Below, piece by piece: positions 58,915 through 61,707 of a stretch of DNA of 64,000 nt (its first letter is position 1; each line of letters starts with the position of its first letter). This stretch comes from Phytopythium helicoides (taxonomy: Eukaryota; Oomycota; Peronosporomycetes; Pythiales; Pythiaceae), in assembly GCA_024867545.1 (NCBI GenBank), contig JANFNE010000039.1:62001-126000 (forward strand), given 5' to 3'. A program made the position numbers and the translations under genes. The notes below the pieces were generated by a model. It did no database searches. It had not been told where the DNA came from and saw only the letters and a list, made by a program, of their open reading frames with translations.

Positions 58915-61707
58915 TCACGTCCGCTTTGGGTTCGCGACCGTCACCACATGAAATCGGGTGCCGTACGGCAGTCGGTACGGATTGAAGTCCTACGATCATC
59001 CAGACAGAAAGTTAGCACCGCGTATCAAACACAAACACCATGCACACGAACCTCAGTTGCCTGGAATGTGTCGATGAAGATAATCTCGCCGCAGATGTAT
59101 GCGGGTGGGGTCTTGTCGCCTCCATCACCGAGCACTGCCGCCTGGATCGACTCGTTCGCTAAATAGTAGTTTGGCGCTCCTTCATTGAAGGCCACATACG
59201 GGAGCTTTCCTCCCTTGAGGAAGAAAAGCGCCAAGTGGCTGATCTGGAAGTTGCGGAACGATATCCGCTGGTGCTGCGTCGGTCCAGCACCTGCCGTCGT
59301 GTTCGCTCCACGAAGACCATGCAGCCCATTTGCCTGTTGCTCTAGCTGCAGCTCAGCTCGCGGTGAGCGTGCTGTGAGCACCTGGGAAAGTGGCAACTCG
59401 TCTGCACCACCCACTCCACCGTCGGCGCCGGCATCAGCCGCATGGAGGTGACGCGCTGAGGAGCTCAACTGCGTGACTGTAACAATGTGAAATTTGGTGC
59501 CCTCCCGAAGACAGTATGGGTTGTGCTCCTGTAGTCACAAGACACTCAAAGTAAGAATTGGCAGGTAGAGAAAAATCTATCGGCCAAATATTCCTGCCTT
59601 ACCGGCGTGCTTTCGTAGTCCTCGATGAAGACAATCTGGCCAAGCACATACGGAGGGTTGCTGTTTTACACCATCAGCATCAGTGAGTTTTTAAATCTTC
59701 TGGATCCATAGACCACAAAGCACGTTACCGATCGTCCCGCTTTGCTGCAGCAATAGACTCCATCGACAAGTAGTAATGCGGACAGCCTTCGTGGAATGCA
59801 ATATAGTCGCCGAACGGTGTGGGAACAAAGAGCGCCACGCCACCGCACTCAAAACTCTTGTAGCAGATGCCAAGAAGTTCCTGGACCGTCGTATCGTCGG
59901 TCACCCAGTCCTTTTGATCGCCACCAATCTTCCAGTTATCGTTCGCAGCGACGGGGATAACCTCCCGCGAAGGCATTCCTCCACTCTCGCTCTCGCCATT
60001 CGCAGATGCTGTAAGTTCGGCCGAGGCATCGGGAGAAGACGTGTCCACCACAACGTCTCTAATCTCCACACCGCCATCGATAATTGCACTCTGTGCAGCT
60101 GAGGTAACGCCAACTGTGTCTCCGTTTACAGTGTCGGGAACAGCAACGGTTTGCGCACTTGGTGCTACCTTCTTGGTCTTCGCCTTGTCGCCAATATTGA
60201 CATCGAGATCTTGGCCGTCCAATACTTTGCGGCCGACATCTTCGTACTCGTTCTCTACAATGACGTATTCGTCGCTAAAGCTCGCCCAGTCCTCTGTGGT
60301 CCCATCAACACGTCAGTATTAGTTTATCCCCACGCACAGCATGATTGCTTGGCACCAAACCGCACCGTATTCTGGCTGAGTGGTCGTGACTAGTGCTGGC
60401 CGAGCTGACGATGTCGAGCTCTCCATGTCGGTGCTAGAATTTGGTGTAGGTGGTAAGAGAAAAGGAGCTCGGAAAAAGTCTTCAAACGAAACTCGCTGCC
60501 GTGGGTCAATGCGAAGCAAGGCCTCCAGTAACTGCTCGCACTCGGGCGACACTTTGATGTGCTTTGGAACTCGGAAGCGGCCGTAGCGCTCGTAGTAGCG
60601 CATAATGTTGCGGCGCAGCGCGAGGTGGTTCGTGGCATGGCAGTTGTCGACTATCAAAAATGGATGGTCGTTTGCCAGCATCTCGTACAATATGATCCCA
60701 ACCGACCACAAGTCCGCCTTGGCATCGTAGCTCTTGTATTCTAGCAACTCCGGTGCCATGTACAATGGGGAGCCGACAACACTCTCGGCCATCATTTCGG
60801 TCTGCAAATGCCGAGCAAAACCGAAGTCCGCTGGAACGTACAAGAGAACATCAGGAATAAGCCTACCACATGATATGCATGAATGTATGAAAGTCGCACC
60901 GATCTTGAGCTTGGTGGTGGCCATGTTTTTGGATGAGAGCAGCAAGTTCGCGGGCTTCAAATCGCGGTGAACCACGTTTTGCGACCGCAAGAACTGCAAA
61001 CCCGAGGCTGTCATTCCCATTCGAGCGCGTTAGCGAGAAGATGAACCCAGGTAGAGCCACAGCTGGTTCAAACGCACCAAGTTGGGACATGAACACGCGA
61101 GCTTGGTCTTCCGAGAGTCCATGATTCGCCTTGATGAGCGTCGCGATGTCTCCACCGGCGCAGTACTCCTGTTCTCCAAATCATACATCAGCGCAACCCA
61201 CCGCGCGCCAATTGCCAGCAGAACGTACGCACCTGCACGATGAAGATGTGCGTCTGGGATTCCTTCGTGCACAGCAGGCGCACAATGTGCGGGTGTCCGT
61301 TCTCGAACTTCTCGACCGCCACGCGCATGGTCTCGATCTCCTTCTCGATGCTCTGGCGCTCATGCGGGCGCCGCAGCTTGTCCTTGCCAACGAGCTTCAC
61401 GGCCACCGCGGCTCCCGACGACAGGTTGATCGCCTTGTGAACCTGTTTCCCGTCCGCAACCGCGAGTCAGCGCCTCCCTCCGCTCCTCTCAATCGCCCTC
61501 AGGCCCTCACCGTTCCATAGGAACCGCGCCCGATCGTCTCGACCAGCCTGCAGCACGCGCAGCAGAGCGGAACGCATCAGCTTGAACCTGCCGCGCTCTT
61601 CCCTCCGCTCCCCAGCTTCCCCCGAGGCCCCAGAGCCCGCGAAACCACCGCACGCACCGGAAGACGTTGCCGCAGACCGTGATCGCCTGCCCATTGACGC
61701 CGCTCAT
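58915..61707 (-). CDS. ATG1/ULK-type kinase fused to two ATG11/FIP200-like claw domains
   Basis: Ten exons with nine short GT..AG introns give one polypeptide. The kinase domain is complete: GRGSYGTV (glycine loop), AVKLV (ATP-binding Lys), HRDLKPANLLL, ADFGFAR, GSPLYMAPELL and DAKADLWSVG, an ATG1/ULK-like set. A linker (about 60400-59960) includes DEYVIVENEYEDVG. Two copies of a claw-like domain follow. Copy 1 has ALFVPTPFGDYIAFH, HYYLSMESI, YVLGQIVFIEDY and NPYCLREGTKFHIVTV. Copy 2 has RISFRNFQISHLALFF, YVAFNEGAPNYYL, ICGEIIFIDTF and NPYRLPYGTRFHVVTV, then stop at 58915. Claw domains of FIP200/ATG11 bind autophagy receptors. Domain identity rests on motifs; joining them is what the exons show. 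Confidence 0.88.

What the first reader, a model, noticed from the sequence alone, without database searches (positions are those of the whole stretch)
58915..61707. ATG1-type kinase carrying two tandem ATG11/FIP200-like claw domains
After splicing nine short introns, one polypeptide contains a complete ATG1/ULK-like kinase and two C-terminal domains whose signature strings (AF..G.P.YYL..ES, LG.I..I, NPY.L..GT.FH.VTV) match the claw at the C-terminus of FIP200 and ATG11. In yeast and animals the kinase and the claw scaffold are separate proteins that must assemble. A fusion would place receptor recognition directly on the kinase and could remove the need for a separate scaffold in selective autophagy. 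Two claws in one chain could allow bivalent cargo binding. I do not know of a description of this architecture, but I cannot rule one out.
Basis: partly seen in the sequence, partly recalled or inferred. Interest (0 to 1): 0.87.

Follow-up and report, generated by a model that had tools for sequence, protein, structure and literature searches.

The report
Oomycete ATG1 kinase with two claws
This gene joins an autophagy-starting protein kinase to two copies of the cargo-reading 'claw' that other organisms carry on a separate scaffold protein; relatives turned up across the oomycetes, which also keep the separate scaffold, and a 2017 gene survey had already noted the fusion in one sentence.

Summary
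Spliced on the minus strand (61707 to 58915; 10 exons, 9 introns of 62-110 bp), the gene gives 711 aa: an ATG1/ULK-family kinase (aa 17-290), a linker with an ATG8-binding-type motif (DEYVIV, aa 328-333), and two ATG11/FIP200 claw domains (aa 463-552 and 615-707). Each claw alone passes the Pfam ATG11 cut-off (E 5.6e-16 and 4.2e-17). Of 40 fusion-type hits, 36 match both claws, and every named one is an oomycete. The claw duplication predates the split of the oomycete orders sampled. Two parts of the interpretation fail. First, the same genome keeps a separate FIP200/ATG11 scaffold, an ordinary ATG1 with an MIT domain, and ATG13, so the fusion is an extra branch, not a replacement. Second, the fusion is in print: a 2017 Phytophthora sojae survey (PMC5431975) says that in oomycete 'Atg1a' an Atg11 domain replaces DUF3543. 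That passage speaks of one domain; I did not find the tandem, the retained ATG8 motif or the changed pocket described. Most likely it is a kinase that docks by itself on claw ligands or on the scaffold; this is inferred.

The parts
58915..61707 (-). whole gene, Atg1a-type kinase with two claws, 711 aa; exons 61707-61658, 61547-61511, 61442-61233, 61168-61078, 61007-60900, 60830-60366, 60293-59729, 59660-59603, 59528-59052, 58989-58915
   Evidence: splice model; matches to both claws in 36 of 40 fusion-type homologues
60457..61659 (-). ATG1/ULK-family protein kinase domain, aa 17-290 (spans introns 1-5), with HRD, DFG and APE motifs
   Evidence: Pfam Pkinase E 5.9e-68; best PDB matches ULK3, ULK1, ULK2; ULK group in kinase tree 98/95
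60256..60273 (-). AIM/LIR-type motif DEYVIV, aa 328-333, inside the conserved block EDWASFSDEYVIVENEYEDVGR
   Evidence: [SED]E[YFW]V.[VIL] in 39 of 40 homologues; the own ordinary ATG1 has GEYVLV; that this is the ATG1 AIM is recalled knowledge
59457..59868 (-). claw 1, aa 463-552 (interrupted by introns 7 and 8)
   Evidence: PF10377 E 5.6e-16 as a separate piece; scaffold-only claw model 86.8 bits; limits
58930..59270 (-). claw 2, aa 615-707 (interrupted by intron 9)
   Evidence: PF10377 E 4.2e-17 as a separate piece; FIP200 claw 7ea2 E 1.5e-7; scaffold-only claw model 67.4 bits; limits
59661..59728 (-). intron 7, phase 2, at the same alignment place and phase as intron 10 of the separate scaffold gene (R|NPPYVLG vs R|YPEFVIG)
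59529..59602 (-). intron 8, phase 0, in claw 1 (STP|EHNPY); same place and phase as intron 9 in claw 2 (ATE|DFNPY), pointing to tandem duplication
58990..59051 (-). intron 9, phase 0, in claw 2

Best explanation
It is the Atg1a of oomycetes: a second, lineage-specific ATG1/ULK-family kinase in which the C-terminal MIT part (which binds ATG13 in ordinary ATG1; recalled) is not detectable and two claw domains of the ATG11/FIP200 kind stand in its place, while the ATG8-binding-type motif after the kinase is kept. Shown by sequence: the kinase, the motif, the two claws, the lack of a detectable MIT domain, the age of the architecture, and coexistence with ordinary ATG1, ATG13 and a full scaffold. 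Inferred: the claws bring the kinase straight to ligands of claws (short aromatic/hydrophobic motifs of cargo receptors, or the scaffold's own claw through the conserved first strand), bypassing ATG13. Pairing of claws within or between chains brings kinases together so that they activate by autophosphorylation, as dimerised Atg1 does in fission yeast. The AIM then holds the kinase on ATG8-coated membrane. It would act as a branch beside the ordinary ATG1-ATG13-FIP200 complex, not in its stead.
For: Domains. ULK kinship; an intron in KI|ADFG shared in place and phase with the own ordinary ATG1. No MIT family at E <= 0.01 in 28 of 28 homologues scanned (28 of the 40) nor at E <= 10 in the window protein, against PF21127 at E 6.2e-10 in the own ordinary ATG1. 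AIM-type motif in 39 of 40. Matches to both claws in 36 of 40, near full length in 28 of 40; claw 1 and claw 2 one group each (99/98 and 94/100). Conservation in 20-residue blocks is 0.67-0.94 inside the claws and 0.83 at the AIM block, against 0.22-0.54 in the other linker blocks (blocks that straddle a claw edge 0.34 and 0.44). Own scaffold, ATG13 and ATG1. Claw pocket and dimer: passages of PMC6477179. Dimerisation activates Atg1: abstract of PMC7511232.
Against: No binding, kinase or expression data. In all 34 fusion claws compared, the FIP200 residues R1573 and R1584, whose mutation almost completely abolishes p62 binding, are P and V/I; K1569 is kept in 2 of 34, S1532 in 3 of 34 and N1517 in none. 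So phosphopeptide binding of the FIP200 kind is not predicted; the 17 scaffold claws compared also lack R1573, R1584 and K1569. The kinase is a little nearer to ULK3 than to ULK1 in PDB sequence scores (182.8 vs 169 bits), and its grouping with the own ordinary ATG1 has only 81/78 support with a long-branch warning. AlphaFold models were poor (mean pLDDT 41.2 and 45.2).
Confidence: 0.6

Rival explanations
1. The claws are mainly a pairing module: claw 1 and claw 2, or the claws of two Atg1a chains or of Atg1a and the scaffold, pair through the first strand to dimerise and activate the kinase. Receptor binding stays with the scaffold.
For: FIP200 claws are stable dimers through the first strand (PMC6477179 passages). 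The matching strand is kept in claw 2 and the scaffold (QRISFRxF, KISFRSF) and recognisable in claw 1 (ICYKSF). Dimerising Atg1 bypasses Atg11 in fission yeast (PMC7511232 abstract). Basic pocket residues are lost.
Against: The aromatic pocket residues (F1529, F1574, F1582) stay aromatic in 34 of 34 fusion claws compared, which pairing alone would not obviously need.
Confidence: 0.25
2. Negative regulator or decoy: Atg1a's claws compete with the scaffold's claw for receptors, or its kinase phosphorylates and releases them.
For: Ordinary ATG1, ATG13 and scaffold all persist in the same genome, so a competitor is possible.
Against: Kinase motifs HRD, DFG and APE are intact and the AIM-type motif is conserved, which suits an active pathway kinase. 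No direct evidence for competition.
Confidence: 0.1
3. Artefact: two neighbouring genes joined by a wrong splice model.
For: No transcript for this locus was available to me; some public models are truncated (P0037-P0040 show one partial claw).
Against: Exons 7 and 9 bridge linker to claw 1 and claw 1 to claw 2 in open frames. 36 of 40 clustered public models match both claws, and 27 of the 28 scanned for Pfam families carry the kinase as well.
Confidence: 0.03

Closest known systems
Oomycete Atg1a of Phytophthora sojae and other oomycetes (PMC5431975, 2017)
   Same: Kinase with an Atg11 domain in place of DUF3543; this gene is by architecture the same kind
   Different: The passage read (section 5) speaks of one Atg11 domain; here two claws are resolved, with the AIM-type motif and the pocket changes. 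Its Figure 3B and supplement were not seen.
ATG1/ULK1/ULK2 kinases, including the own ordinary ATG1 on C5 (L025)
   Same: ULK-family kinase followed by an AIM-type motif; shared intron in KI|ADFG
   Different: Ordinary ATG1 ends in MIT domains that bind ATG13 (binding recalled); here two claws and no detectable MIT domain
FIP200/RB1CC1 and ATG11 scaffolds, including the own scaffold on C57 and its copy on C25
   Same: Claw domain; claw 1 shares an intron place and phase with the own scaffold
   Different: The scaffold has an ATG17-like domain and one claw, and no kinase

Membership tests
ATG1/ULK kinase family | Kinase domain of the ULK group | tested here: met
   Top PDB matches are ULK3, ULK1 and ULK2 ahead of all others; grouped with ULK1, ULK3 and own ATG1 apart from six other own kinases, 98/95
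ATG1/ULK kinase family | AIM/LIR after the kinase | tested here: met
   DEYVIV; motif in 39 of 40 homologues; function not tested
ATG1/ULK kinase family | C-terminal MIT pair (DUF3543 / EAT) that binds ATG13 | tested here: not met
   No MIT family in the window protein at E <= 10 nor in the 28 homologues scanned at E <= 0.01
ATG1/ULK kinase family | Required for autophagy | not testable with these tools
   needs gene removal
ATG11/FIP200 scaffold | C-terminal claw (PF10377) | tested here: met
   two copies, E 5.6e-16 and 4.2e-17
ATG11/FIP200 scaffold | ATG17-like domain (PF04108) | tested here: not met
   absent from the window protein, present in the separate own scaffold at E 3.5e-27
FIP200-type phospho-FIR-binding claw | Aromatic pocket F1529, F1574, F1582 | tested here: met
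   aromatic in 34 of 34 fusion claws compared
FIP200-type phospho-FIR-binding claw | Basic residues K1569, R1573, R1584 | tested here: not met
   R1573 is P and R1584 is V or I in 34 of 34; K1569 kept in 2 of 34
Oomycete Atg1a (PMC5431975) | Kinase plus Atg11 domain, DUF3543 absent, beside a separate Atg1b | tested here: met
   the 2017 accession list was not read, so orthology to that very gene rests on architecture and on the P. sojae relatives

The most novel reading that the evidence does not exclude
Oomycetes run a second autophagy-initiation route in which cargo is read directly by a kinase with two unlike claws, giving bivalent or hetero-specific receptor reading and claw-driven kinase activation without ATG13 or a scaffold. 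Each claw would have a different partner, for example one the scaffold and one a receptor.
Probability: 0.25. Interest if true: 0.8.

Novelty: new member of a known kind. Interest (0 to 1): 0.5.

Why it matters
How Atg1 is activated, and whether bringing it to cargo is enough, has been studied with artificial means (forced Atg1 dimers bypass Atg11 in fission yeast; abstract of PMC7511232). Oomycetes carry a natural, old kinase-claw fusion beside the ordinary complex, so the question can be tested by removing one branch. It is also a lineage-specific autophagy kinase in a group with many plant and animal pathogens.

Tried and rejected
Scaffold replacement: rejected, because the scaffold gene exists, with a near-identical second copy. 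Sole ATG1 of the organism: rejected, because an ordinary ATG1 with an MIT domain lies on C5. A third candidate kinase on C10 showed no claw, AIM or MIT part to the eye in its open frames; no family search was run on it. Distribution outside oomycetes: two protein searches from different fusion proteins gave no named non-oomycete fusion; 5 of the 40 fusion-type hits have no source name, and the word-based search can miss distant ones. ATG101 and MIT1 family searches of the genome were empty, but no control rang, so absence is not shown; the MIT1 profile matched the own ordinary ATG1 only below its cut-off. The six-frame ATG17-like matches were just below the cut-off and that profile also rang weakly in 8 of 14 control genomes; the spliced C57 protein is far above it (96.3 against 43 bits). 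The C25 copy was not spliced. AlphaFold models of two homologues were poor (mean pLDDT 41.2 and 45.2); the second shows the same strand-strand-helix-strand-strand order in both claws, with claw 2 mostly at 54-74. A Foldseek search with it put kinases first and FIP200 claws as the best non-kinase matches (E 0.02, rmsd about 10), and no match reached E 0.001, so I give it little weight. Whether claw 1 and claw 2 are each other's nearest kin is unresolved in the tree (85/35, long branches meet); the shared intron favours tandem duplication. Papers: nine of ten searches used, seen as listings; five papers were opened, PMC5431975 (passages and section 5), PMC6477179, PMC10913709 and PMC10183829 (passages), PMC7511232 (abstract). 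Of these only PMC5431975 describes the fusion, and it is the only paper holding all of 'ATG1', 'ATG11 domain', 'kinase' and 'oomycetes'. 'Tandem claw' and 'two claw domains' matched no paper. The library lacks most subscription journals and a separate bioRxiv collection.

Full report
The gene. Pfam finds a protein kinase at aa 17-290 (E 5.9e-68) and two stretches of PF10377, the ATG11 C-terminal family. The two pieces scanned apart score 5.6e-16 and 4.2e-17. By sequence alone, the claw-2 stretch matches solved human FIP200 claws (8 of 11 PDB sequences listed at E <= 10; best E 1.5e-7); claw 1 gave no PDB match of that kind. A claw model made only from 17 scaffold proteins scores 86.8 bits on claw 1 and 67.4 on claw 2; the best of 500 shuffled C-termini scored 4.9 bits. 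Chance is excluded. The frame is open through the joins that matter: exon 7 runs from the linker through about half of claw 1, exon 9 from the end of claw 1 through most of claw 2.

The kinase. Its best solved relatives are ULK3 (182.8 bits), ULK1 (169) and ULK2 (167), ahead of all other kinases (149.2 bits or less). In a 17-row tree with six other kinases of the same genome it falls in the ULK group (98/95) and beside the genome's own ordinary ATG1 with weak support (81/78, with a long-branch warning). It shares with that ordinary ATG1 an intron in KI|ADFG at the same place and phase. After the kinase stands EDWASFSDEYVIVENEYEDVGR. A motif of the form [SED]E[YFW]V.[VIL] is found in 39 of 40 homologues, and the ordinary ATG1 has GEYVLV. 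From recalled knowledge this is the ATG8-binding motif of ATG1. No MIT domain is found in the window protein at E <= 10 or in the 28 homologues scanned at E <= 0.01.

Relatives. A search with the claw region gave 41 proteins: 40 fusion-type hits and one scaffold-type protein (P0041). Of the 40, 28 hold two near-full claws, 36 hold matches to both claws, and four show one partial claw (P0037-P0040). One of the 36 (P0033) is a fragment without kinase. The 35 with a source name are all oomycetes (Phytophthora, Peronospora, Plasmopara, Bremia, Hyaloperonospora, Pythium, Globisporangium, Lagenidium, Nothophytophthora, Albugo, Saprolegnia, Achlya, Aphanomyces, Thraustotheca); five have no source name. 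A second search from the Saprolegnia protein gave those same 40 and no other. In a 52-row claw tree (of 104 claws held) claw 1 (99/98), claw 2 (94/100) and the scaffold claws (85/35 with P0041, 96/95 without) each form one group, and claws of Saprolegnia-type, Albugo and Phytophthora-type species lie in both claw groups. The duplication is therefore older than the split of the orders sampled. Claw 1 and claw 2 share a phase-0 intron before NPY, and claw 1 shares a phase-2 intron with the own scaffold.

The same genome keeps the ordinary machinery. PF10377 rings also at C57 and C25, each with an ATG17-like match upstream that is just below the cut-off in six frames. The C57 gene splices to 914 aa with ATG17-like (E 3.5e-27) and one claw (E 3.9e-23), both above the cut-off. 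C57 and C25 are 94.4% identical over a 7,038-column alignment, so alleles or duplicated chromosomes. Ordinary ATG1 with an MIT2 domain lies on C5 (PF21127 E 6.2e-10) and an ATG13 HORMA domain on C24 (E 4.4e-12). Scaffold-type proteins were found for the same species as fusions in at least twelve named cases, for example Saprolegnia diclina, Albugo laibachii, Bremia lactucae and Phytophthora ramorum. So the fusion does not replace the scaffold.

The pocket. PMC6477179 (passages) names F1529, F1574 and F1582 as the hydrophobic pocket of the FIP200 claw and S1532, R1573 and R1584 (with K1569 near) as binders of sulfate ions; F1574A, R1584A and R1573D almost completely abolished p62 binding. In 34 fusion claws and 17 scaffold claws aligned here, the three aromatics remain aromatic, while R1573 is P in every one and R1584 is V, I or M. 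K1569 is kept in 2 of the 34 and S1532 in 3. The claws are thus true claws with a changed pocket, and binding of FIP200-type phosphorylated motifs cannot be assumed.

How it likely works. Shown: the parts, their age and the company they keep. Inferred: the claws take the place of the ATG13-binding tail and dock the kinase on receptors or on the scaffold. Claw pairing brings kinases together, which activates Atg1 in fission yeast (abstract of PMC7511232), and the AIM ties it to ATG8 membranes. The main rival is that the claws serve pairing more than receptor reading.

Print. PMC5431975 (section 5 read whole) says for oomycetes that the DUF3543 domain 'is replaced by an Atg11 domain in Atg1a', that Atg1b belongs to the family conserved in almost all eukaryotes, and that oomycete Atg11 has an extra Atg17 domain. 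The fusion and the coexistence are therefore known. Two claws, the retained AIM and the pocket changes were not found in the searches made, of which I opened five papers and saw the rest as listings. Figure 3B and the supplement of PMC5431975 were not seen. No title or abstract start in those listings reports a functional study of Atg1a.

Verdict. The architecture is real, old and widespread in oomycetes, but already noted in print; its mechanism is untested and open to test.

Noticed in passing
window 57662-58768 +: WD40-repeat protein gene, converging on the Atg1a gene with 146 bp between the two stop codons.
   Followed up: partly
window 61887-62639 -: Open frame for a membrane protein with a charged coiled-coil-like tail, no Pfam family above its cut-off, upstream of Atg1a on the same strand.
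   Followed up: no
L007 and L008 (G000 C57 and C25): The scaffold gene region is present twice at 94.4% identity over 7 kb, suggesting two haplotypes or a hybrid genome.
   Followed up: partly
P0004, P0075: Public names mislead: the Phytophthora cactorum kinase fusion (P0004) is called 'Autophagy-related protein 11', and a P. nicotianae scaffold (P0075) 'Multidrug resistance protein ABC superfamily'.
   Followed up: no
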